The notes under the pieces: model-generated | What the model saw: only the letters and a program-made list of their open reading frames with translations | Told to the model about the DNA's origin: nothing | The model's database searches: none | DNA from: Patagioenas fasciata | Taxonomy: Eukaryota > Chordata > Aves > Columbiformes > Columbidae | Direction: 5' to 3' | Assembly (NCBI RefSeq): GCF_037038585.1 | Contig: NC_092520.1 | Location: 12,097,001 to 12,161,000 of the forward strand | DNA length: 64,000 nt | In this document: one piece after another, positions 10,921-62,542 of the stretch | How positions within the stretch are numbered: the first letter of the stretch is position 1 | Layout of the letters: the number at the start of each line of letters is the position of its first letter | Position numbers and translations under genes: made by a program

Positions 10921-11131
10921 ATGCTGGAGAATGGCTCCCTGAGGAACTGCTGCGACCCGGGCGGGCGAGGCCGCTTCGGCTTGGCAGAGCGGGAGGCGGC
11001 GGGCGCGCCGCGGCCCGGCTGGGTGGTGCCGGTGCTGTCCAGCGTGCTGATCTTCACCACCGTGGTGGACATCTTGGGCAACCTGCTGGTCATCATCTCC
11101 GTCTTTAAGAACCGCAAGCTCAGGAACTCAG
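10921..11131 (+). CDS. MTNR1B: MTNR1B coding exon 1 (melatonin receptor 1B, residues 1-70 plus first base of codon 71)
   Basis: This exon encodes the extracellular N-terminus, transmembrane helix 1 and the first intracellular loop of a melatonin receptor, a Gi-coupled class A GPCR of the plasma membrane. The N-terminus has an N-glycosylation sequon (NGS, Asn4) and an NCC near residue 9. These match the MT2/Mel1b type rather than Mel1a or Mel1c. TM1 spans about residues 35-61 and contains the conserved GNLLV. The start is the first ATG of the CpG-island transcript; I see no upstream ATG between the likely cap site and it. The exon ends after a single base of a Gly codon (phase 1) at a strong donor, CAG|GTAAGG. 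This is the position, just after the KLRNxG loop, where melatonin receptor genes carry their one coding intron. Confidence 0.96.
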
Positions 11132-35961: not shown

Positions 35962-37275
35962 CACACAGAATCACACACACAGAATTGGCTAGGTTGGAAA
36001 AGACCTCAGAGATCATCAAGTCCAACCCTTGGTCCAACTTCAGCCCATTTACTAGATCATGGCACTAAGAGCCATGTCCAATCTCAGTTTAAAAACCTCC
36101 AGGGACGGTGAGTCCACCACCTCCCTAGGCAGGCCATTCCAATGCCTGATCACTCTTTCCGTAAAGAACTTCTTCCTAATATCCAGCCTAAACTTCCCCT
36201 GGCAGAGTTTAAGCCCATGTCCCCTTGTCCTATTGCTAACTGCCTGGGAGAAGAGACCAGTTCCCACCTGACTATAACTTCCCTTCAGGTAGTTATAGAG
36301 AGTGATGAGGTCACCTCTAAGCCTCCTCTTCTCCAGGCTGAACAACCCCAGCTCCCTCAGCCTCTCACCATAGGTCATGTGCTCAAGTCCCTTCACCAGT
36401 CTTGTTGCTCTTCTCTGGACCCACTCCAGCACCTCAATATCTTTCCTGAACTGAGGGGCCCAGAACTGAACACAATACTCCAGGTGTGGCCTCACCAATG
36501 CAGAGTACAGGGGAAGGATCACTTCCCTTGTCCTGCTGACCACACTATTTTTGATACAGGCCAGGATACCATTGGCCTTCTTGGCCACCTGGGCACACTG
36601 TTGGCTCATGTTGAGCTTCCTGTCAATCAGTACCCCCAGGTCCCTTTCTGCCTGGCTGCTCTCCAGCCACTCTGTGCCCAGCCTGGAGCGCTGCAGGGGG
36701 TTGTTGTGGCCAAAGTGCAGGACCCGGCACTTGGCCTTGTTGAACTTCATCCCATTGGAATCAGCCCATTTTTCCAGTCTATCCAGATCTCTTTGCAGAG
36801 CCCTCCTGCCTTCCAGCAGGTCGACACTGCCCCCCAACTTGGTGTCATCAGCAAATTTGCTGATGGTGGTCTCAATCCCCTCATCTAAATCATCAATAAA
36901 GATGTTAAACAGGACTGGACCCAACACTGACCCCTGGGGGACACCACTAGTGACTGGCCGCCAGCTAGATGCAGCCCCATTTACCAGCACTCTCTGGGCC
37001 CGGCCCTCCAGCCAGTTCTTAACCCAGCAGAGAGTGCACTTGTCCAAGCCATGGGCTATCAGCTTTTGAAGGAGTATATTATGGGAGACAGTGTCAAAGG
37101 CTTTGCTGAAGTCTAGATAGATCACATCTACAGCTTTCCCCTCATCCACTAGGTGGGTCACCTGATCATAAAAGGAAATCAGGTTGGTCAGACAGGACCT
37201 GCCCCTCCTAAACCCATGCTGGCTGGGTCTGATCCCTGGTCCATCCTGGAGGTGCTGTGTGATTGCAAACACAAC
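35962..37275 (-). mobile_element. CR1 LINE, long young copy, minus orientation, 5' truncated
   Basis: This element carries the 3' tip at its left edge, a short 3' UTR and the C-terminal part of ORF2 on the minus strand. It has no internal stop over its coding part, unlike the other CR1 copies in the window. It is truncated inside the reverse transcriptase domain at about 37275. Confidence 0.93.
36052..37272 (-). pseudogene. CR1 ORF2 C-terminal part: reverse transcriptase, 406 codons open
   Basis: The frame encodes the non-LTR reverse transcriptase from the SQHGF region onward. Motifs in order are [13 protein letters not shown], the [10 protein letters not shown] block, the catalytic FADD at about residues 140-143, and the CR1 C-terminus with [11 protein letters not shown] and KRRLRGDLI. 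The endonuclease domain and the first RT motifs are missing, so the copy cannot transpose. It lies within intron 1 of MTNR1B on the opposite strand. Confidence 0.93.
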
Positions 37276-39499
37276 AAGAAAGCTATTGGAAGCCTTCTAG
37301 AACTCTTTTTTTTTTAAGTGAATTTTGAGTACAGGGGCTACAGTAGTCTGGCAGAGGAATGAAAAAGGGGTCTGAAGAGTGAGCTAGCACTAAAAAAATG
37401 CCTAGTTTTTAGTTCAACTCCTTCTTGAAGATGTCCATTATTGTGAACTCTGCAGAGGAATGATTTATATAATGATAGGACTCTTATTTACTTCATTAAA
37501 GTAAAAATCTTGCTCCTCTTCCTTTAGTACATAAAAATAACTACAGGTAGTTGGCAGAGTGATATCGTAGAGTTCTTATCATTCTCAACCAGTATAAAAG
37601 GCTATTTATTTATAAACATAGTACTGATAATTAGAGGGGTTTTTAAGCCTTAAGTCCAAAGAACTTTCCCGCTTACATTTGAACTGAAGGCATAATGAAG
37701 TAAGAAATTTGCAAGAGTGACTCTAGGTTTCCCTTAAGGTTAGGATATGGAAATGGAAGAATAAAACAGCTATCCTGAGTCATCAGTCACTGGTATTTTA
37801 AAAAATCTGCCAATAGATGCATATACTTTCTGCCTTTCCTGTCCCTACTCCTTGCCTGGGTTTCTCCACAGCGCCACAAGTTTGACAGTAGGAGAGGAAG
37901 AGACAAACAGTCTGTATTCAAATACTTTTCCTGTCTTGAAACCAGGCATCTGAATGTTAAAGAAGAAAACAGTGATGGATGCACAAGAATACATGAGGAC
38001 GAACATGACTGTGGCTGGGGGGAGAAACAGAGCTAAGAGGGTGACATCTTTTTGCAATGTGTCACGATTTCTTATTCAAATGTGTAATGATCAAAACAAC
38101 ACCTGATAAAAAATAAAACTTCATGATTTATATAATGATCCATTTCAGCCAGTTTGAAACCAAGAAGCAAAACCTTTTAAAAAGTGGTTGATGATTGCAA
38201 TTGTTTGGTTTTTGTAGAGATATTAGAACTCAATTGTCTTTGCAGAAGGCAGATGCTTATTTCTTAGAAGTCCAGACCTTACCAAACAGTTTGTTCTGTG
38301 ATTAAATTCCTACAATATCAAGTCACAGGATTGCATGAGGGTGTGAAAGTTCATTTTTTCCTGTTAACCGAGGTAAAAAAAAACTATGCAAGCATGCCTC
38401 ATGAAGTATTGATCCAGTTCCCTTGCACCCAAAGTGAAGATCAGAACTTATTTCCTTTTCTATGCACCCAGCTATCGATGTTTAGAACAGTGCAGATGTG
38501 TATCTTTTTGATTCCTTGGTTAGATATTTGGCTTTTAGTAGCAACTGCTTGTAATTAAGGAGCATTTCCATTTCAGTGAATTCATGTTTCTTCTAAATGA
38601 ATATAATCTTCTGCCTGATAAAACTAAAATCCAGGAACAAAGTCCATTGAGTAGATTATGGAAATAATGATAATCATTCCAACTAGATGAGCATTTGTGG
38701 TTTCTATTTTGTCACAGTTAGCAAAAAATTACCTCTTTGATTTCCTTGTTAATGTAATTATGACCACTCCAAACGGTGTGTCTTAGGTGTATCAAGGAAG
38801 ATTTACTTTCTCCAAGCACTTACAGGACTTCTAAGATCTTCAATTTCTCAAAATGTTGATTATGCATTTTTTATGAATTAGAACAGTTTCTCTCTACTTT
38901 TGTAGATTACTCATTGCAGTAATATAATGTTAAACTTCATCTTGCAGTCAGCCAAATCAAAAGAAAATAAACACCGGACCTTATTTTGCAGTGCATGGTG
39001 TGAACGCTTGACCCTGTAAACAGCCGTAAAAGTGACAAATCACTTGAGCCCTTTATAGATATTGCACCATTTTTCTTCTGTGTTGTAAAGTGATATATTA
39101 AGTTTTTGACAAGTTCATTGCTAACTCTCCTTATTCATTGCAGCTGGAATTTTCAATAAGTCCTAAATTACACACACAATTTTGAAATTCTCTTGCCAAA
39201 TGTACTTTACAATAAATTCCCAAATATGATTGAAAGACCTGAATGCCCACTTGATTTTAACTGAACAATTACATTTTATGTATAAACCAATGCTGGGAGG
39301 CCTTAGAGATTAGATTATTCTTAACACACACTCTGGACTAAACTCTGTCTTTCTCCAAAGGGCATTTTAAAACAGTACAAAGTATATTTTCTTTCTCCTG
39401 ACTTATCTATCTTCTAATGTCAAACACAGTGATGAAAAAACATAAGATAAATTCTTGTTGCCATGATGTAAACATGTTCTGATAAAGGTGCCCCTACTT

Positions 39500-40060: not shown

Positions 40061-41716
40061 AGCACGTATAAAGCTAGCAGGAAATGTTTCCTTGTGCAGG
40101 TCCAACAACATACCTAGATCCCCTCAACCTTAAAGCAGCGAGGGACAGTGATGTGGGAGGACACAAAAAACTGCAATGGTATTGGTTTTCCATCCTACTT
40201 CTAAGACAAATAGCATGGAAATGCCTCGCAGCAAACTGTAGCTATGATAACACTTGGCCTTTGAAGTATAAAGAGAGTGTGAGACGGACTGCTAAATGTA
40301 GAGCAAGGAACCATGTAAAATAAGTTGCACACCACTCCTGAGATGTGCTATATCTCTCTAGCTACAGATGGAAAACTGTGCGTTCTATGAAGTTCAGTTG
40401 CTGCTGCACAAATTCAGATGAGCTTGGTCTTCCTCTGGGAGAAAAAGAGTTCCCCATTCTTCAAGTCAGGTTAAGCAAGCTACAAATATAGAGCAGGTGG
40501 AGTGAACAGTTAAATCTTACAGAGTTGCTGGTTTTCTGGCTCCCAGATGAAGATATAATTATCCACAGCATTATTTCTGTGATTAAAATTAAGTGGAGAA
40601 ATTCTTTTATATATGTTTACTATAAAGCTCAGAATTTGTAGGACTGAGCATCTAATTGCTCTTTAAAAAAATAATTACGTTCTACACACAGTTTTAAAAG
40701 CTACTTGGGTTGTTTGCACTTCTATTCATACTGTGAAGGACTAAAAGCAAAAAAGTGAGTAAGCAAACCAGAAATGTGTTTTATGCTACCTAAATGTCAA
40801 GAATCTAAAGTTAGTACCTCTATTTTCTGTCTCCTGGGGAGTTCCTAGAGAATGATTTCATGTTTTTCTTAAAAAGCAAGGAAAGCACTACTTACCATGG
40901 TAAGAATCTAATTTTTCGGGAATATAGTTTACTATCTCAATATTTTATTAATATATCCTAGATACAATGTTCAGAAATTTCAAATTTTTGAAAATGACAC
41001 TGTTGAAAGAGAGACAATAGTGGCAACTACATCACTAAAAGTTCTTTAAACATCATCAGCAAAAAAATAATCTAAAGGTTCCTCCCATTAATTTGAATTC
41101 TTTATCTTGCATTCATGCATTTTTCCTTGGTATAATTAAAATGTGTTTCTGCAGAGGATGGTGAAGGCAATATCCACTTTCTTAGTCAATCGGGTGGAAA
41201 AATAACTGCAGTACAGGTAGGCCATTCATGCAGAAAATATCTATATAACAGACTATTGTGTAGCAATTTAGACATAAACCAACACATCCTTCTAATCCCT
41301 ACAGACCCAGTACTTGCATATCTCTTCCTTTGATGCCTGTTGAGCCTGTTGTATTTCAGGGACAGATTAGAATGGCATAATGGTCTGCCTACCTGCCACA
41401 ATTCAGACTTGCTTCTTTTTCACATTATTCAATCCAGCTGTGGAGTTAACTACACTGAAGCAACTCAACATATGCTTGCTGACGGTTGTTTATTAAAGAA
41501 GTAGAAAGGAGGGTACAATCAAGTCACCAACAGATTTGAAGTATCATGTTGCTGCAGATATTTCTGTGGTATTCTACCTATTGGTCCTATATACCTGCTG
41601 CGTGCTGACATCATCAAAAAATTAGCATTGCAGATAGCCAAAATAATATATTTACTTCTTCTTCACAACTATGCTTGCTTTCAGAATTATGCCTATATAT
41701 TTTTCTTTTTCCCCAG

Positions 41717-42585
41717 GTAATGCATTTGTGGTGAGCCTGGCTTTGGCTGATCTGGTGGTGGCCTTGTATCCATACCCACTGGTGCTCTTAGCTATTTTCC
41801 ACAATGGATGGACGTTGGGTGAAATGCACTGTAAAGCGAGTGGCTTTGTGATGGGACTCAGTGTAATAGGCTCTATTTTCAACATCACTGCAATTGCAAT
41901 AAACCGATATTGCTATATATGTCACAGTTTTGCCTATGAGAAAGTGTACAGCTGTTGGAACACAATGCTGTATGTCTCCTTAATCTGGGTATTAACAGTA
42001 ATTGCAATTGTGCCAAATTTTTTTGTCGGCTCTTTAAAGTATGATCCACGAGTCTATTCCTGTACATTTGTTCAGACTGCAAGCTCCTACTATACGATAG
42101 CTGTTGTGGTAATTCACTTCATCGTCCCTATCACCATTGTGAGCTTCTGCTACCTTCGAATTTGGGTTTTAGTGCTTCAAGTCAGAAGACGAGTCAAGTC
42201 AGAAACAAAGCCAAGACTGAAGCCAAGTGACTTCAGAAACTTTCTTACTATGTTTGTGGTTTTTGTGATTTTTGCCTTTTGCTGGGCACCTCTAAACTTC
42301 ATTGGACTGGCTGTAGCCATCGATCCTATGGAAATGGCACCAAAAGTTCCTGAATGGTTATTCATCATAAGCTACTTCATGGCTTATTTCAACAGCTGCC
42401 TTAATGCAATAATATATGGACTTCTTAACCAGAATTTTCGGAATGAATACAAACGAATTTTAATGTCACTGTGGACGCCAAGGCTTTTCTTCCAGGACAC
42501 ATCCAAAGGAGGGACTGATGGTCAGAAGAGCAAGCCTTCTCCTGCTTTAAACAACAATGACCAAATGAAAACTGATACCTTGTAG
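41717..42585 (+). CDS. MTNR1B: MTNR1B coding exon 2 (melatonin receptor 1B, residues 71-359 and stop)
   Basis: This exon carries TM2 to TM7 and the C-terminal tail. It starts after a pyrimidine tract ending CCCCAG and completes the split Gly codon. Joined to exon 1 it gives 359 residues, close to the 362 of human MT2. Visible motifs are Asp82 in TM2, Cys109 and Cys186 (the conserved disulfide pair), NRY at 133-135 in place of the usual DRY (a melatonin receptor hallmark), CWAP with Trp260 in TM6, and NAIIY at 300-304 in place of NPxxY. Asn171 and His204 align with the human MT2 ligand-pocket residues Asn175 and His208. No frameshift or premature stop is seen, so the receptor looks functional. 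The family mediates melatonin signalling in circadian and seasonal physiology; tissue expression cannot be read here. Confidence 0.97.
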
Positions 42586-53860: not shown

Positions 53861-53866
53861 GAGGTT

Positions 53867-54317
53867 TGTGGAGAGTTACTGGCTGTGTGCTGTGAACAAG
53901 CCAGGGCTTGATGCGGCTGTGCTACACGGAAGGATTTCCCTGAGACACCAGAGACAAAAGGAAAGTAAACACAAGCCGCTCTGCCCTCGACCCAGGCTGC
54001 AGGAGGGGCGTTGCCGCTGCGCATGAACAGTCTGTGAACAGTGCCCTGCAGCCAATCACCATAGTGGGGGGGGATGAGTGACTGTGAGTGTAACCAATTG
54101 TAGCCTGCGCTTGCCGCATGGCCTTTTGGTATAGAGTATATAAGGCTTGGAAAAACGTGGTCTCGGGGACATTGATATTCAGTGTTGTTTAAGAGTTCAT
54201 TAAAGAGTACGGATGGTAAATTCACATTGAATTAGACTCCTTACTCTCGCCCGGCCCGCCCGTTCGATCAAAGAGCTTATGCCGGCGTCTGGATTCGTCG
54301 AATTTGCTACCGCCACA
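53867..54317 (+). repeat. 5' LTR of the endogenous retrovirus
   Basis: This 451-base LTR starts TGTGG and ends CCACA, giving a 5-base perfect terminal inverted repeat. U3 has CCAAT boxes at 54052-54056 and 54094-54098 and a TATA box TATATAAG at 54137-54144. An ATTAAA polyadenylation signal is at 54199-54204. R would therefore begin near 54168. Compared with the 3' LTR it differs at 53957 (A versus G) and 53972 (C versus G) only. Confidence 0.96.
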
Positions 54318-54417
54318 TTTGGTAGCAGAGGATGGTTCGTTAGCAGAGCATAACGCTTCGGATCTACATATGGTAGCAGAAGGATGGATCGTTAGCAAAG
54401 CATATCGCTCCGGATCG
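54315..54417 (+). repeat. Tandem duplication of the primer-binding-site region in the retroviral leader
   Basis: Two adjacent units, 54315-54365 (51 bases) and 54366-54417 (52 bases), match at most positions. Each begins with ACAT and contains TGGTAGCAGA, GATGG, CGTTAGCA, AGCATA, CGCT and CGGATC in the same order. The second unit has a one-base insertion within its primer-site copy (54371-54389). The duplication starts on the last three bases of the LTR. Confidence 0.8.
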
Positions 54418-54555
54418 AAATTACTGCGGTGAGCAGCGTTCATAAAAACGGAGCCAAGCCGGGGTGTGGGATAGTGTGCTTAGTCCGGTATCAAAAGACG
54501 GGCACCAGTCGAGCTGGCCACTCGCATCCTACGTTAAGACCGCGCTGATAAGATA
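54318..54555 (+). other. Retroviral leader between 5' LTR and gag
   Basis: This 238-base untranslated leader has the primer binding site and its tandem copy in the first 100 bases. The remaining part would be expected to carry the splice donor and packaging signal, but I could not assign either with confidence. Confidence 0.6.
54320..54337 (+). promoter_or_regulatory. Retroviral primer binding site, initiator tRNA-Met type
   Basis: Two bases after the 5' LTR, TGGTAGCAGAGGATGGTT is complementary over 18 nt to the 3' end of vertebrate initiator-methionine tRNA including its CCA. This tRNA assignment rests on remembered tRNA sequence. Well-studied retroviruses use Trp, Pro or Lys tRNAs, so this primer choice is unusual. 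Confidence 0.85.
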
Positions 54556-56634
54556 ATGGATATTGAAACAGCCGCGGCACTGCTGACGACTATTCTCTCT
54601 AAGAGAGGTATTGAATCGTCACAGGAAAAGCTAATCACATTGATTTTTTTAGCTCAGAAGTGGGGACACTTTGGAGAAGTTCCACTTTTGTTTTCCCCAA
54701 CGGAATGGAGATCAGTGGGGGACACTATGTGGGACAAAACTATCAGAGGGGAAGAAGAGAAAGAAATTAAATCTGTGAGAGAATTGTGGAAAACCGTATT
54801 AGAATCATTAGAAATTATGAAATCGGAACAACGTGCCGCCCTAAGAGCCGCGGAGGCGCTTGTCCCAGAACAAACCTGGACTGATAAAACTTGTCGTCCA
54901 AAAGAAAAGAGGGGCCTGTGGGCTACTCTGTGGGGTCTGCCTGCCGTTCGGGGTGGTCGCGGGGTCCCGGCTCAGCCAATACTTTCACAATCCGATCTGC
55001 AACGCGGATTAGAAACTGCGCGGCTCGTAAACAAAGGACCGGAAGTTTCCCCCTCCGAGTCTCTGGGGCAATGTGCCAAGAAGGCGGAAGTGCAACTAGT
55101 CGACTGTCCGGATGTGGGAGGCCCTGAGTGCCGCCCTCCTCCTACCGCTCCGCCTCTGCCCTGCCCCGAGCCGGACGCCCCACCTCCCTCCGAGAAAAAC
55201 GTGGGGGCCCGTCCCGGACCGGCCGCGGCGCCGTCGCCGGGGCCGGGGCCGCCTCAAACTTTGCCTCCGCAAGCACCCGCGGAAGTTTTTTGTGAGCCTC
55301 CTCCTACATCATTGGGCTCACCCCAAGCAGTAGAGCAGTTACTGTAAGTCATTACCAACAAGCTTGAACAACTTAAGACTGTCAAATGTAGAGAAAAATA
55401 AGGAACAAATTGAGTTTCAAAAACCAGCTTGCCCTTCACAAACAATGCAATCAAAGGTGCCTATAGATTCTACTGACCAGCCACAGCCCCGACGTGGCAG
55501 ATGGTCAGGGGTCATCAAAGATGCCATTCTAGAAGGTGATTGGTCTCCAGCAAAATTAGCCCTACCGGTAATTCAAAATATGAACACTCAGCGGTATGGG
55601 AACCACACGATTGGAAAATTTTGCAGCAAGCAAAACAAACAATCACCAACTATGGTATACGTTCAGAAGCGACCAGACAAATACTGCATTGGATTTTTAC
55701 CGCTGACTTATTGTGTCCCATGGACTGTCAAAATTTAATGCGCCTATTATTAACTCCAGCGCAATTCCTCCTGTGGGAATCAGCTTGGTATCAACGAGCG
55801 CAGCAAGAAACAGCAAAACACACCAGTCCAAATGACCCATTAACCAATGTGGTACCTGATGCCTATACAGGTCGTGGACAGTATGCTACCATAGAAGTTC
55901 AACTGCGATTTACAGCTGAAATTCACCGAAAAGCTGCACAACTTGCCCTAGATGCCTTCTTAACCTTACCGGGACCATTAGCTCCCTCATTCAGCGGAAT
56001 ACGCCAAGGCACCACAGAAGATTTCTCACATTTTATTGACCGGCTACATGAGGGAGTAATGCAAAATCCGGACTTATCAGAAGAAATGAAAAATCAAATG
56101 TTTCGGCTGTTAGCTTTTGATAATGCAAATTCAAAGACTAAACAAATATTAGCAACTCTGCCGCCAGGATCATCAGTAGAACAAATGCTGACACGAGTAG
56201 CCAGATCAGAAGAACACCGAAGTGCAGAGGTGATGGCTGCCGCTTTCGAAGGGGTCATGCAGAGATCTCTCCGACAAGTTAGCCAGCAAGTCTCATCTAC
56301 AATGCAACCAGTTGTAGCAGCAGTTCAGCGATCAACAAATAAATTCTGTAAATCATCATACAATTCCTGTCATCGCTGTGGAAGTAAAGAACACGTCCGA
56401 ACGAACTGTACTGCAGCAGTTTGGTGTGACAGATGCCAGTCTAACACTCATGCTACAAAAATTTGCCGGAGATCGGGAAACGGTCAAGTGAGCGCGAACG
56501 GAGTGCGCGCGAGGACACAAAGAACATCTCCGAACCTGTATCACAATCAGCGACCAACTGTGAACCAGGCTTCTTTCACCTCAACAAGCCAAGCACCGCA
56601 GGAAGCCTCGGAGTTGATGTGGAGACAGCAGTAG
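54556..56634 (+). pseudogene. gag: Retroviral gag, broken by a stop and frame changes
   Basis: Gag is the structural polyprotein (matrix, proline-rich middle, capsid, nucleocapsid). The first ATG after the leader opens 263 codons. The N-terminus looks like a matrix domain without a Gly2 myristoylation site. A proline-rich part follows, with a PTAP late-domain motif at residues 196-199. A TAA at 55345-55347 ends this frame. The next coding-like stretch (about 55397-55570) lies in another frame, then the original frame resumes from about 55585 through capsid and nucleocapsid to 56634. Capsid has a major homology region (GIRQGTTEDFSHFIDRL). Nucleocapsid has two CCHC zinc knuckles (CHRC...C and CDRC...C, near 56371-56466). 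The breaks mean no full-length Gag can be made from this copy. The exact frame-change points were judged by eye. Confidence 0.88.
56475..56481 (+). promoter_or_regulatory. gag-pro ribosomal -1 frameshift slippery site
   Basis: GGGAAAC lies in the gag frame as G GGA AAC, which fits the X XXY YYZ rule and is the heptamer type used by betaretroviruses at gag-pro. The dUTPase-protease frame is open in the -1 frame across this site and gag ends 153 bases later. A downstream pseudoknot was not evaluated. Confidence 0.8.
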
Positions 56635-57332
56635 ATATAACATTGACCAATACTGCAATTCATAGAATACCAACTAATGCTAAAGGACCTTTATTTAGAC
56701 AAGATAGTCTCATTGGAGGCCTATTGATTGGCCGTTCTTCTGCTAGTATCAAAGGTCTTATAGTAATACCAGGTATAATTGATGCAGATTTCACAGGAAC
56801 TGTTCAAATCCTGGCCTACACTCTGCATCCGCCAATTTTTATTCCTTCTGGGAGTAGAATAGCTCAGGTAGTAGCACTAGAAAACTGCCTACCAATGCTT
56901 CCAGGAGTTCCTCCAGCATCCTCAACAGAAAGGCGTGATAAAGGATTTGGATCGACAGGTCCTGCAGTTTGCTTCACCTCATCAATGACTCAGCGTCCCA
57001 TGTTACGTGTGCAACTATTTCAGTCTGATTCTACTGTTGTTGTAGAGGTAAATGCAATGCTTGATACTGGAGCTGATGTCTCCATCATTAGTCAATTCAA
57101 ATGGCCACGAAATTGGAAACTTCAAAAATCAATCTCTTCCACTGTTGCTGGAGTAGGGGGTCAAACTACTCCAAATATAAGTGTTGATCCCATTTCCATT
57201 AGTTTCCCTGAAGGTCAATGTGTTACCCTTAGGGTGTATGTAATGGAATTGCCAAGCAGCCTTGAGGCGCTTATTGGCCGTGACGTCTTGGGGCAACTTG
57301 GTGCCGTGTTAACTACTTCACCTTTTCCTTAG
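56481..57332 (+). CDS. pro: Retroviral dUTPase-protease (pro) open frame
   Basis: This frame is entered from gag by -1 frameshifting and is open to its TAG at 57330-57332. The first half is a dUTPase-like domain, which hydrolyses dUTP and limits uracil incorporation. It has recognisable motifs including GRSSASIKG, PGIIDADFTG and IPSGSRIAQ. The second half is a retroviral aspartic protease with LDTGAD (active-site DTG codons 57063-57071), a glycine-rich flap region and the C-terminal GRDVLG. No G-patch extension follows. The dUTPase-before-protease order is betaretroviral. The frame looks undamaged, but translation depends on the damaged gag upstream, so production of active enzyme is doubtful. 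Confidence 0.87.
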   Translation, partial: RSSERERSAREDTKNISEPVSQSATNCEPGFFHLNKPSTAGSLGVDVETAVDITLTNTAIHRIPTNAKGPLFRQDSLIGGLLIGRSSASIKGLIVIPGIIDADFTGTVQILAYTLHPPIFIPSGSRIAQVVALENCLPMLPGVPPASSTERRDKGFGSTGPAVCFTSSMTQRPMLRVQLFQSDSTVVVEVNAMLDTGADVSIISQFKWPRNWKLQKSISSTVAGVGGQTTPNISVDPISISFPEGQCVTLRVYVMELPSSLEALIGRDVLGQLGAVLTTSPFP

Positions 57333-60022
57333 TGGTCACTGGAAAGCAGTTGCCCAACCCTCCATTGACCTGGTTAACAGATAGCCCAGTTTGGGTTGAC
57401 CAGTGGCCATTAACAGAAGAGCGACTGCAAAAGGCACGTGAATTAGTAGAAGAGCAATTAGTTGCAGGCCATATCAAGCCTTCTACTAGTCCATGGAATA
57501 CCCCAATTTTTGTAATACCAAAAAAGAGTGGAAAGTGGCGATTATTACATGACTTGCGAAAGGTAAATGATCAAATGCAAGCCATGGGTGCTTTACAGCC
57601 TGGATTACCATCACCTGTAATGTTACCAGAAAATTGGCATATTCTAATTATAGATTTAAAGGATTGTTTCTTTACCATTCCTTTACATGAGCAAGATACA
57701 CAGCGTTTTGCATTTACACTGCCTTCAGTAAACAAAGCGGAACCAGCTAAAAGGTATGAGTGGGTAGTGCTACCGCAAGGTATGAAAAATTCTCCTACAC
57801 TGTGCCAAATGTATGTTGCATGGGCACTTCAACCTATTCGTGCATCATGGAAACAAACAATTATTTATCATTATATGGATGATATTCTGTTCTGTCAACA
57901 AGCTGAGTTCACAGAAAATTCCATAGTCCAAATTACAATCAAACTCAAAGAAAAGGGGTTGGTCATAGCTCCAGAGAAAGTTCAAAAGTCTGCACCTTGG
58001 AAATACCTTGGTTGGTCCATTTGTGATGCACAGATTCGTCCACAAAAAATTGAATTACATACTGATTTACAAACATTAAATGATGTCCAAAAATTGTTAG
58101 GGGACATACAATGGATTAGAAATTGCGTAGGCATTACTAACAATGATATAGCACCTCTTACTTCACTTCTAAAAGGAGGTGATCCAGCTAAGAAAATAAG
58201 CTTAGAGTCCGTGCATCTCAAATGTCTTTCTGATATTATACAAAAAGTACAGACAAATTGGTCTAGCCGAAGACTTTCTGATCGACCAATTTCCCTCCTT
58301 ATTAGCAATCTAGAACATCCGTGTGCAATCATCTGCCAGTGGCAAAACAAAAACGGGGAATTCCCCATAGATGTTGCTACAGATTCTTCCTTTTGTGCCA
58401 CTGTCAGATTGAAAACAGAAAATGATTTACGATTATTAGAGTGGATTTTTCTCAGTGTCCAACCAAAATTCAGTATTCAAACGAGACCAGAAGCAATTGG
58501 AGAATTGATTCGAAAAGGAAGATCTCGAATACTAGAAATTAGCGGTCAGGAACCAGATGATATCAGTATTCCGATAAATGGAGCCGATTTAGAATGGTGG
58601 CTGAGACATTCGATGCCTATACAGAATGCATTATTAGGATTTATAGGCAAGGTACATTCACGACAACCAAAAGGTAAACTATGGCAATTCCTTAGAACAA
58701 ATCAGTGGTTAGAGAGAAGCAAAGTAAAAGCAAAACCTGTTGAAGGCCTTACAGTATATACAGATGCAGGAAAACGAAGACACCAGGCAGCATGTGTCTG
58801 GCAAGAGAATAGTCAATGGAAACAGCATTTAATTGAAGGTTCAAAAGAGGATTCATTGCAGACTTTAGAGCTCACGGCAGTGATATGAGCCTTAAATAAT
58901 TGGCTGAAATTTGCTTTAAATGTTGTCACAGATTCTTTGTATGTAGCAGGTGTAATACCCAGAATGGAAAATGCCCTGTTAAGACAATCGAATAATCCTC
59001 GATTAGGAAAATTGTTTGTACAATTGAGAGCTATTTTAAATCTAAGAAAAGAACCCTGTTGTGTGATTCACATCCGCAGTCATCAATGGAATCTTGGTCT
59101 AGGTGAAGGAAATCAAATTGCAGATAGTTTAGTAAGTTCAGTACAGCACATGCCTCCAACAGATAAATTCCAACAAGCGAGACAAAGTCATGAGAGCTTT
59201 CATCAGAATGCCAGAGGTCTCCAAAGACAATTTGATTTAACTTTAAATGAAGCAAGAAGTATTGTACAGGCATGTCCTCAGTGTGGAAGCCAGATGTTAG
59301 GTATAGGAATCGGTGTCAATCCTCGAGGTTTAAAAGCCTTAGAAGTATGGCAAATGGATGTGACACATGTGCCAGAATTTGGAAGACTTAAATATGTGCA
59401 TGTCACAATTGATACTTTTTCAAAAATGATATGGGCTACTGCTTTACCAGGGGAAAAAGCACTACATGTATGTAAACATCTTGCAGCTTGTTTTGCTGTA
59501 ATGGGTGTCCCAGAAAAGATTAAGACAGACAATGGCCCTGCCTATGTTAGCCAGAAAGTTAGAACTTTTCTAATGAAATGGGGAGTGAAACACATTACAG
59601 GTATACCTCATTCCCCAACAGGCCAAGGAATCATCGAGAGAGCACATCAAATGATTAAAGGGTATTTGAGCAAACAGAAGCAGGAAGAGTTAGATTGTCA
59701 ACAGCGTTTAGCAAAGGTGTTGTTTACCTTGAATTATTTATGTCTAACTGGAGATCATGAGGAGCCTCCTGTGATCATTCATCATTATCAGATCAGACTA
59801 GGAAGGAAAAACACTTTACCGGAATTCATGGTGAGATATCGTGATCCCACCACTGGATTGTGGAAGGGACCAGTACCTGTTATTTTTAATGGTAGAGGGT
59901 ATATGTGTCTCTCCACAGATCAAGGTCCATTATGGGTTCCAAGCCGAGCAGTAAAGCCGGAGTTGAAACAAACTCAACCAAGTCAATTCCCTGCAGCAGA
60001 ACCTTCGGAGGTCACAGAGTGA
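57284..60022 (+). pseudogene. pol: Retroviral pol (reverse transcriptase, RNase H, integrase) with one nonsense codon
   Basis: Pol is in the -1 frame relative to pro and open from 57284, overlapping the end of pro; no canonical slippery heptamer is evident in the overlap. RT has LPQG and the catalytic YMDD (57872-57883). RNase H begins with the YTDAG motif near 58757 and is interrupted by TGA at 58886-58888; the same frame then continues without further stops to 60022. The distal part has the RNase H residues in VTDSLY and NQIADSL. It then has an integrase with its HHCC zinc-binding region, catalytic residues in WQMDVTH, KTDNGPAY and QGIIERAHQ, and a C-terminal DNA-binding domain ending near WVPSRAVKPE. 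The single stop would give RT without integrase. Confidence 0.93.
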
Positions 60023-60348
60023 GGTGTAACCTTTGCATTGATTTAGCTGTGACATGTATGCGTACTATAGTTATATAAGTAGATCTTTAAACACCACTAC
60101 CTCTTGAGTAAGTTTATCAACACCCAGCACATCGTTTGTTATAAGTTGAGTATCTTTAAACCAAAGTTCTTGGAATTTGTTTAATCAATCCATTGCGATA
60201 TTTAAACGGCAATGGAATACCTCAGGTTTATTGCAAAGTACACTGTTTACGTTGATTGTTGTTGTTATTTATATGTTATGTATAAGTTGTTTTTTATCAC
60301 ATATCAAAAAAGGATTAGAACACACAGCTAATCAATCCTGGCTTGTCC
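60023..60348 (+). pseudogene. Residual env region: possible C-terminal transmembrane remnant
   Basis: Only about 350 bases separate pol from the 3' LTR, far too few for an envelope gene. The open stretch from 60177 encodes a hydrophobic segment of about 20 residues (around TLIVVVIYMLCISCFLS) followed by a short basic tail, like the membrane anchor and tail of a retroviral TM subunit. The surface subunit and ectodomain are missing. The env identity is inference from position and hydrophobicity. Confidence 0.5.
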
Positions 60349-60372
60349 AAAAAGAAAAAAAAAAAGGAGGAA
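60349..60372 (+). promoter_or_regulatory. Retroviral polypurine tract
   Basis: A purine-only run, A-rich and ending AAAAAGGAGGAA, lies one base before the 3' LTR. This is the expected position of the plus-strand primer of reverse transcription. The long A run is also prone to length error. Confidence 0.85.
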
Positions 60373-60373
60373 T

Positions 60374-60824
60374 TGTGGAGAGTTACTGGCTGTGTGCTGT
60401 GAACAAGCCAGGGCTTGATGCGGCTGTGCTACACGGAAGGATTTCCCTGAGACACCAGAGACAGAAGGAAAGTAAACAGAAGCCGCTCTGCCCTCGACCC
60501 AGGCTGCAGGAGGGGCGTTGCCGCTGCGCATGAACAGTCTGTGAACAGTGCCCTGCAGCCAATCACCATAGTGGGGGGGGATGAGTGACTGTGAGTGTAA
60601 CCAATTGTAGCCTGCGCTTGCCGCATGGCCTTTTGGTATAGAGTATATAAGGCTTGGAAAAACGTGGTCTCGGGGACATTGATATTCAGTGTTGTTTAAG
60701 AGTTCATTAAAGAGTACGGATGGTAAATTCACATTGAATTAGACTCCTTACTCTCGCCCGGCCCGCCCGTTCGATCAAAGAGCTTATGCCGGCGTCTGGA
60801 TTCGTCGAATTTGCTACCGCCACA
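60374..60824 (+). repeat. 3' LTR of the endogenous retrovirus
   Basis: This 451-base direct copy of the 5' LTR has the TATA box at 60644-60651 and ATTAAA at 60706-60711. The two differences from the 5' LTR are at 60464 and 60479. It is followed directly by the target duplication GAGGTT and then by unique host sequence. Its promoter elements are intact by eye, so it could drive transcription rightward from 60824. Confidence 0.96.
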
Positions 60825-62542
60825 GAGGTTTAAGCCACCTGTCAGCCATATTAATCCACCAAGCACACTAAGACATGCAGGGTCCTACAGGTTTCCTGAT
60901 GGGACCTCATAGGTGTCACAGTGCCACTTCTGTAAGCTGTGTGGTGCATTTCTAGACAGCCCTTGAGATGCAGCGAGTAGGTCACTGGTTTTAGCTTGAT
61001 TTTGGTCCACCTACACTCCTTCATCTTAAATTGTTGTTGATATAAAATGTCAGTTCCAGTTTTCCTCCACAGATGAGTAGAAAATCCAGGGAAGTAGATA
61101 ATTCTGGAATCATGTTGGTAGATATCCGTAATAAACAAACACTACCAATCCAGTAGGATCAAACTTGTTTCTTCCTTTCTTTTATCCTGATTTTCAGTTT
61201 TTAAATTAGTGGACAGAAATACTCATCTTCAGTCTTAAACTGAGGGTATTTCACAGGGCAAATGATATATCAGTTTCATGAAGGTGACTGGGTTTCCTTT
61301 CAGATTAAAATATTACTTAATATGATCAAGAAAGAGAGCTGAACCTTTAATTGCTGAAACACCTACTTAGTTGCTTATAGTTCTCTTTGTTTCTGTCAGA
61401 CAGAGGTGACATTTGCTATAGGCCATGCTCTTCTGACCTTTGCAATTAGTACCATAAAAATCCTTTCTAGGGGAGGACTGCACGCACACCATGTGACAGA
61501 GAAGCCCTCTCTTCAAGCTCCTGTGAAGCCTAAAGGGTGAGTCTGAAGTGTTCAGTGTTGAAGCCAACTTGCTCTAATACTACAAGACTTGGAAATTATC
61601 CCCTGTACAGCACGGCCTCTGTCACCACACTCAGTCACATGGAGATGCATCAGCAGAAAAGAGCTAGGCTGATTTTTCAAAGCAATACTCCTGGTATTTT
61701 TCAGCCACTTACGAGCTGGTGAACAATTCCAACTGCAATAAGCTAAAGCCACATATAGCCTGACTTGCTTCTCATCCCACTTTAATAACATAGGTCCTTT
61801 CTAGGGCCTGAAGCAAAATTATTACTCTCTATGGAAAGGGTAAGATATCAGTCTTAAGACATCTCAGTGCAGGGATTTTATGTACATATCTGCATGTGAT
61901 CTGAGTGTCCAAGGCCTTATCATACAGTAGAATCTGTGCAACACTTCAGCTGACCCTACAGTAGATAACCAAGATATCATCCAGTTACCTAGAAAGAAAT
62001 ATGCTGTTTTAAATAACCTGAGATATCTAAGGCATGTATGACAAAGGACCTGTGGGAAATGTGTACATTTCTGGAGAAACCCTAGGGCATTTCAGATAAT
62101 TTTAAAAGCCTTTGCATAGGTTGGTCAGTTGGGCCGTTTGTGTCTGATCAGCAAATTTGCTTTCAGTGCTCTGTGAGTTTTATGAGTGGATTTCTCATAG
62201 AGGTGAGCTTAGACACTTAGCTCATATATGAAAATTTTCATTTTTATGTCTTAAATTAGAACTGAACCCTACTGCTAGTGACTTCAGCTGATGCCAGATC
62301 TGATCCCACCAAACTGTCAGCTATCAGCTCTGATCTCACCGAAGCATCAGCACCATACCCAGCCCTGAAAACAAGGAGTTAAGCAACAACAAATTTTCTG
62401 TTGGGCAAGAGGGACTGAAGGGCAGGCAACAAGACCCTTCCTAGAGTTGTTTGTTTCCTTTAATAAAAAATTGCAACAGAAACAAACCAAAAACTCTTCA
62501 GAAGGGTAATTTTTGCACAGGAGTAATAGGGAGGTGTAGTCA

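What the first reader, a model, noticed from the sequence alone, without database searches (positions are those of the whole stretch)
53867..60824. Young betaretrovirus-like provirus with near-identical LTRs but a heavily damaged coding region
The LTRs differ at 2 of 451 positions, which implies a recent insertion (roughly a million years if a neutral rate near 2e-9 per site per year is assumed). Yet gag has a stop plus frame changes, pol has a stop and env is gone. That is more damage than the LTR divergence predicts. The simplest explanation is that the parent copy was already defective and was mobilised in trans by a helper virus. Assembly errors are the alternative.
Basis: partly seen in the sequence, partly recalled or inferred. 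Interest (0 to 1): 0.75.

Follow-up and report, generated by a model that had tools for sequence, protein, structure and literature searches.

The report
Pigeon virus fossil spread by helpers
This is one copy of a large, young family of virus-derived jumping DNA in a pigeon-like bird genome that lost its envelope gene before spreading, and whose commonest form also lacks its shell-protein gene and so must have been copied with borrowed machinery.

Summary
The provirus is real and exactly placed (53867-60824): 451-nt LTRs with 2 differences, a 6-bp target duplication, class II (betaretrovirus-like) gag-pro-pol in three frames, and env reduced to a short tail. The damage has two origins. (1) Env loss is shared by all 39 scored sister places (505 candidates). 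One gag frameshift (a 5-nt loss) is shared by 15 of 47 typed sisters. (2) The gag stop and a 4-nt gag loss occur in 0 of 47 typed sisters; an exact pattern for the pol stop matches only the window. These three private breaks fit the LTR age (1.2-2.2 expected; P of 3 or more 0.11-0.38), so "more damage than the LTRs predict" fails for them. Trans-mobilisation holds more strongly elsewhere: an 838-nt deletion removing capsid and the gag-pro slippery site is found at 329 places, against 164 with capsid. Of 12 such copies dated by both LTRs, 8 have identical LTRs, yet they cannot supply their own Gag or, normally, Pol. Verdict: an avian counterpart of MusD/ETn and bovine ERVK C/D pairs. The window copy belongs to the capsid-bearing minority; its helper was not identified.

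The parts
53861..53866 (+). target site duplication GAGGTT (left)
   Evidence: identical to 60825-60830; exact 6-bp duplications also at 11 of 14 and 10 of 11 sister copies
53867..54317 (+). 5' LTR, TG...CA, TATA-like box at LTR position 271, ATTAAA at 333
   Evidence: 2 differences to the 3' LTR
54320..54337 (+). primer binding site, 18 of 18 to the 3' end of initiator-methionine tRNA (tRNA sequence recalled)
54315..54416 (+). 52-nt tandem duplication that includes the primer binding site; second copy imperfect
   Evidence: both units present in 18 of 19 typed sisters, with small differences
54556..55347 (+). gag, first stretch, ends at a private stop codon; begins Met-Asp, no myristoylation glycine
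   Evidence: stop in 0 of 47 typed sisters
55370..55588 (+). gag, stretch coded in another frame, bounded by a 5-nt loss (shared by 15 of 47 typed sisters) and a 4-nt loss (0 of 47)
55589..56634 (+). gag, capsid (Gag_p24) and two zinc knuckles; most of it deleted in the short sister class
55680..56517 (+). stretch (838 nt: capsid and gag-pro slippery site) missing from the short sister class
   Evidence: 16 of 19 LTR-nearest typed sisters; junction pattern at 329 places genome-wide
56475..56481 (+). GGGAAAC slippery heptamer, in phase, gag to pro
56445..57332 (+). pro frame: dUTPase and retroviral protease (DTGA)
57284..58888 (+). pol, reverse transcriptase (YMDD) to a private stop in the RNase H region
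   Evidence: stop in 0 of 26 read sister pieces; exact pattern once in the genome
58889..60022 (+). pol, rest of RNase H and integrase (HHCC and DDE residues seen by eye)
60150..60373 (+). presumed env transmembrane tail and polypurine tract; rest of env absent in all copies compared
   Evidence: colinear in 14 of 14 sisters and 39 of 39 scored sister places
60374..60824 (+). 3' LTR
60825..60830 (+). target site duplication GAGGTT (right)

Best explanation
The window carries one copy of an env-less class II endogenous retrovirus family that spreads inside the germ line of a pigeon-like bird by retrotransposition. Env was lost before the family expanded. Capsid-bearing copies, some with an open gag, presumably supply particles and enzymes. 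Two defective kinds of RNA are copied by them: capsid-bearing copies with a 5-nt gag frameshift (the window copy's parent, probably) and, mainly, an 838-nt deletion form without capsid or slippery site. The window copy inserted about a million years ago (assumed rate) and then gained its own gag stop, 4-nt gag loss and pol stop by ordinary decay. Shown: shared versus private breaks, numbers of matching places, LTR differences, target duplications. Inferred: co-packaging, a helper within the family, intracellular life style.
For: Env: 14 of 14 LTR-nearest sisters and 39 of 39 scored sister places, of 505 candidates, are colinear with the window across the env site, as is a copy whose LTRs differ at 16 sites (L114/L123). 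838-nt deletion: same junction in 16 of 19 LTR-nearest typed sisters; 329 genome-wide pattern matches, reversed-pattern control 0, against 164 for the capsid-bearing sequence, window included, control 0. Of the 12 short copies with both LTRs read, 8 have 0 and 4 have 1 difference. Gag frames of the 16 short copies end at 71-408 codons; open capsid-bearing ones reach 657-700. 5-nt frameshift in 6 of 19 and 10 of 29 sisters (one copy is in both sets: 15 of 47), and in 7 of the 23 copies dated at 0-1 LTR differences. Gag stop and 4-nt loss 0 of 47; pol stop 0 of 26 read pieces, one exact match in the genome, the window. Private breaks: 3 seen, 1.2-2.2 expected. All four combinations of 5-nt allele and capsid deletion exist, as recombination between co-packaged RNAs would give.
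Against: On a tree of 30 capsid-bearing copies the 5-nt loss is scattered (9 changes; shuffled mean 9.1), so inheritance by the window's parent is not shown by descent; the loss contracts a short tandem repeat and may recur. No complete helper was looked for or identified. Sister copies were chosen by closeness to the window's LTR or gag, so age and share figures are not a random sample. The list of 329 places was cut at 100, so whether some are local amplifications was not seen. No expression or mobilisation data.
Confidence: 0.82

Rival explanations
1. All damage in the window copy, except env loss, arose after insertion; the parent was gag-pro-pol intact and moved by itself.
For: Three of the four small breaks are private; expected lesions match; 14 of 29 capsid-bearing sisters have an open gag; the 5-nt loss does not cluster on the tree and sits in a short tandem repeat.
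Against: The 5-nt loss is in 15 of 47 sisters and in 7 of 23 copies with 0-1 LTR differences, far too frequent for repeated post-insertion loss unless the repeat is hypermutable; the three best sister hits of the gag search (L087-L089) all carry it.
Confidence: 0.25
2. The private breaks in the window are assembly errors.
For: No reads could be examined; both small losses are at short repeats, where errors are common.
Against: Two of the three private breaks are single-base stops, not indels; the 5-nt loss recurs in other copies; private substitutions in the same copy are not unusual, 11 in 2875 compared columns, although 8 of them lie in the pol piece, the highest of its 15 rows.
Confidence: 0.05
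3. The short class is mobilised by a helper from another retrovirus family, not by capsid-bearing copies of this family.
For: Of the three capsid-bearing copies among the LTR-nearest set (window included), two carry the gag frameshift and one a pol stop; no complete copy was shown.
Against: 14 of 29 capsid-bearing copies keep an open gag; haplotypes mix between the short and capsid-bearing classes, which suggests shared particles.
Confidence: 0.15

Closest known systems
Bovine ERVK[2-1-LTR] competent (C) and defective (D) elements (PMC10924933; abstract and passages seen)
   Same: Same LTRs, minority with genes and majority without, defective form dominates, recombination between the two forms, trans-complementation inferred.
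   Different: Bovine D form has a different centre and no functional genes, C form keeps env; here the defect is a plain 838-nt gag deletion with pol left in place, and env is missing from every copy compared.
Mouse MusD / ETn (PMC6466679; passages seen)
   Same: Env-less class II family, intracellular amplification, non-autonomous partner causes more insertions than its coding partner.
   Different: ETn has no coding capacity; here pol frames remain. In MusD/ETn the helper is shown by experiment (as cited there); here it is inferred.
IAP I-delta-1 of mouse (named in PMC10924933 passages; structure recalled)
   Same: Internal deletion form of an env-less class II family that is moved by relatives.
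   Different: Deletion there spans gag-pol (recalled); host and primer differ.
Avian class II pol/gag records, e.g. Ciconia boyciana pol 71% over 97%, Pelecanoides urinatrix pol 75% over 68%, Caloenas nicobarica gag 71% over 55%
   Same: Nearest named protein relatives; the Caloenas gag also begins without the myristoylation glycine.
   Different: At least a quarter of residues differ; no record of the same family appeared in the two protein searches (the best 120 of 381 pol hits and all 17 gag hits were listed).

Membership tests
Class II (betaretrovirus-like) endogenous retrovirus | gag, pro and pol in three frames, each -1 to the last | tested here: met
   GGGAAAC in phase at gag-pro; no canonical heptamer found in the short pro-pol overlap
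Class II (betaretrovirus-like) endogenous retrovirus | dUTPase ahead of protease in the pro frame | tested here: met
   PF00692 and PF00077
Class II (betaretrovirus-like) endogenous retrovirus | closest solved relatives of capsid, RT and integrase are class II | tested here: met
   HERV-K capsid named by the record; best RT hit 7sr6 384 bits against 180 for HIV-2; integrase hits 7usf, 3jca, 5cz2, 5cz1 at 169-252 bits, next 7jn3 147. That 7sr6 is HERV-K and 7usf/3jca/5cz2/5cz1 MMTV is recalled
Class II (betaretrovirus-like) endogenous retrovirus | 6-bp target duplication | tested here: met
Genus Betaretrovirus in the strict sense | lysine tRNA primer (usual, not strictly defining; recalled) | tested here: not met
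   initiator-methionine match 18 of 18 (tRNA recalled)
Genus Betaretrovirus in the strict sense | G-patch at the protease end (recalled) | tested here: not met
   no G-patch family among the matches (E up to 0.01); pro frame ends right after protease
Genus Betaretrovirus in the strict sense | betaretroviral env | not testable with these tools
   env absent in all copies compared
Autonomous / non-autonomous ERV pair (MusD/ETn, bovine C/D kind) | shared LTRs and leader, gene-killing deletion with one common junction at many sites | tested here: met
Autonomous / non-autonomous ERV pair (MusD/ETn, bovine C/D kind) | recent separate insertions of the defective form | tested here: met
   11 of 12 short copies with both LTRs read have exact 6-bp duplications, all 12 have 0-1 LTR differences; the twelfth lies in a tandem array
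Autonomous / non-autonomous ERV pair (MusD/ETn, bovine C/D kind) | identified coding-competent partner | not tested
   open gag in 14 of 29 capsid-bearing copies; complete copies deliberately not sought
Autonomous / non-autonomous ERV pair (MusD/ETn, bovine C/D kind) | mobilisation shown in cells or pedigrees | not testable with these tools
   sequence only

The most novel reading that the evidence does not exclude
In a bird, a simple capsid deletion turned an env-less, initiator-methionine-primed retrotransposon into a parasite of its own family that outcopies its helpers and still exchanges segments with them, a gene-drive-like takeover caught in progress, with the gag frameshift and a second deletion from the same left breakpoint as parallel cheaters.
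Probability: 0.5. Interest if true: 0.65.

Novelty: new member of a known kind. Interest (0 to 1): 0.5.

Why it matters
The trans-mobilised retroviral cheaters listed in the bovine paper (passages) are from cattle, mouse, koala and possibly human; this would add a bird, where one small deletion with a junction that can be typed at hundreds of places has taken over. It also shows that damage in a young provirus should be split into shared and private breaks before age and decay are compared.

Tried and rejected
Excess damage over LTR age: rejected. With 2 differences in 902 LTR sites, about 12 coding substitutions are expected, 0.65 stops and 0.5-1.5 frameshifts (indel:substitution ratio 0.05-0.15 and mutation weights assumed); 3 private breaks have P 0.11-0.38, and 0.33-0.73 if the internal private rate (11 in 2875 columns) is used.

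Descent of the 5-nt loss by tree: no signal (1 of 26 inner branches starred; L104 is a misplaced long branch because its piece leaves the family at 56065). Association of the 5-nt loss with the 55215-55225 haplotype: 5 of 6 against 3 of 13, Fisher P 0.04, chosen after seeing the data.

Reading the capsid deletion as splicing was considered and dropped: the aligned ends overlap by a few bases at the junction and look like repeat-guided jumps, not intron ends. Two scans of viral contigs gave nothing. Rfam gave nothing. Whole-genome counts of the 5-nt alleles and the gag stop were asked for and not answered; one for the 4-nt loss was not asked. Those figures stay at 47 typed copies. Dating L107 failed (no match of its 3' piece). 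The set is not a random census: 19 gag-typed sisters came from the 40 best LTR places (window pair, 14 other pairs, 10 singles: 3 solo LTRs, 5 read in gag, 2 3' ends not read in gag), 29 from the 40 best gag places (window, 29 with loci, 10 without); one copy is in both sets. Both LTRs were read in 25 sisters. My first reading of the two gag frame changes as a compensating pair with a stop caused by the first shift was wrong: the stop is a break of its own.
Full report
Observation. The element spans 53867-60824 between 6-bp repeats. Pieces match Gag p24, dUTPase, retroviral protease, reverse transcriptase, RNase H (just under its cut-off) and integrase. Nearest solved sequences for capsid, RT and integrase are class II (several names recalled). 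For the pro frame the best hits are a dUTPase chain (2d4l, 48.9 bits) and proteases of myeloblastosis-associated virus and RSV (39 bits), all weak. The primer site matches initiator-methionine tRNA at 18 of 18 positions (tRNA sequence recalled), unusual for a vertebrate class II element as far as I recall.

Host. The window lies at G000:C1:12097001-12161000 in an assembly of 1,453,922,657 bases. It holds the melatonin receptor 1B gene; exon 2 is 100% identical to Columba guinea and at most 98% to the other 119 listed of 558 hits. Columba guinea is a columbid.

Sister copies by LTR. A search with the 5' LTR had 1328 first-look candidates, 40 scored. These gave 15 LTR pairs including the window and 10 single places. 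Pieces were read from the 14 other pairs and from both sides of the 10 singles. Of the singles, 3 are solo LTRs, 5 are 5' LTRs with gag readable and 2 are 3' LTRs. Gag was thus typed in 19 sisters: 16 lack 838 nt (55680-56517 in window terms, same junction), 1 lacks 190 nt from the same left breakpoint, 2 keep capsid.

Sister copies by gag. A search with 55200-55750 had 503 candidates, 40 scored including the window; 29 sisters gave loci and all keep capsid, as the query reaches into it. One of them is also in the first set, so 47 distinct sisters were typed in gag. The gag stop is in 0 of 47 and the 4-nt loss in 0 of 47. The 5-nt loss is in 15 of 47 (6 of 19, 10 of 29, one counted twice); a different, 6-nt loss at the same repeat is in one more. 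Gag is open for at least 657 codons in 14 of 29, and in one of the two capsid-bearing copies of the first set.

Pol and env. The pol stop is absent from 14 of 14 pieces, from 8 of 8 readable pieces of capsid-bearing copies plus the tandem neighbour (a ninth piece, L116, does not match the family) and from the three best hits of the gag search. An exact 31-base pattern for it matches once in the genome, at the window; a copy with another change nearby would be missed. Of the 14 pol pieces, two have other stops and one a 2-nt loss. Across the env site all 14 pieces are colinear with the window, 39 of 39 scored sister places (505 candidates) match end to end, and so does an older copy with 16 LTR differences (L114/L123). 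At an assumed 2e-9 per site per year that copy is about 8.9 My old and the window about 1.1 My, 95% range 0.13-4.0, so env loss long predates the window insertion.

Trans-mobilisation. Short copies lack capsid and the gag-pro slippery site, so they can make neither particles nor, by the normal route, protease and pol. Their gag frames end at 71 to 408 codons in the 16 read. Yet of the 12 with both LTRs read, 8 pairs are identical and 4 differ once, and 11 have exact 6-bp duplications. The one without lies in a tandem array. The junction pattern occurs at 329 places with up to 3 mismatches, reversed control 0, the capsid-bearing sequence at 164, window included, control 0. Of the 100 places listed for the latter, 28 are one variant spread over C47:9.7-22.8 Mb, probably a local amplification. 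The list for the short form was cut at 100 places on C1-C3, so whether it is amplified there too was not seen, and 2 to 1 is a count of places, not of separate insertions. These facts require that particles and enzymes came from elsewhere. That they came from capsid-bearing family members is inferred from open gag frames and from mixed haplotypes: both 5-nt alleles occur in both classes.

The window copy. Three private breaks are within what its age predicts. The 5-nt frameshift is probably inherited, since 7 of the 23 copies dated at 0-1 LTR differences carry it, but the tree does not show descent. If inherited, the window's parent could not make capsid and was itself moved in trans; if not, it was an env-less copy that may have moved alone. 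I put the first at about three in four. With 2 LTR differences the window is older than the 23 copies at 0-1 and younger than L108 (8) and L114 (16).

Way of life. Gag begins Met-Asp in the window and in all 29 typed capsid-bearing sisters of the second set, and Met-Glu in the Caloenas relative, while the Nyctibius grandis relative begins Met-Gly. Loss of the myristoylation glycine and of env is the pattern of intracellular mouse elements (env loss and other changes: PMC6466679 passages; glycine loss recalled). This fits spread by retrotransposition within cells; it is inference.

Literature. PMC10924933 (abstract and passages) describes 15% competent and 85% defective bovine ERVK elements with recombination and trans-complementation, and lists mouse, koala and possible human pairs. 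Ten paper searches were made; those with pigeon or columbid terms listed 15 of 24, 10 of 50 and 10 of 31 papers, none of whose titles describes this family. Only those listings were seen, so this is weak evidence of absence. The one passage seen of PMC2329609 says nothing of which tRNA primes chicken elements.

Noticed in passing
window 54315-54416: A 52-nt tandem duplication covers the primer binding site; 1 of 19 typed sisters (L009) has a single unit and several others differ by a base or two. A doubled primer site may offer template switching at the start of reverse transcription.
   Followed up: partly
G000:C47:9726484-22801470: 28 of the 100 listed capsid-bearing places are the same two-mismatch variant along 13 Mb of one contig, which suggests an amplified segment (sex chromosome or ampliconic region, untested).
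   Followed up: no
G000:C2:59585849-59594572 (L043, L044, L125): Tandem provirus: the 5' LTR is preceded by another internal region and polypurine tract.
   Followed up: partly
L019 (G000:C2:30036109-30042870): A separate 190-nt gag deletion starts at the same left breakpoint as the 838-nt one; the aligned ends at both junctions overlap by 3-5 bases, as in reverse transcriptase jumps.
   Followed up: partly
window about 10921-11130 and 41716-42582: Melatonin receptor 1B exons 1 (by eye) and 2 on the + strand; the provirus lies about 11 kb downstream in the same orientation.
   Followed up: partly
window 36052-37296: Open frame of 414 codons on the - strand that looks like CR1 LINE reverse transcriptase (by eye).
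   Followed up: no
G000:C1:21591912, C2:30549341, C2:6938784: Three solo LTRs with 99% identity to the window LTR and matching 6-bp flanks: young LTR-LTR recombination.
   Followed up: partly
window 57284-57332: No canonical slippery heptamer in the 49-nt pro-pol overlap.
   Followed up: no
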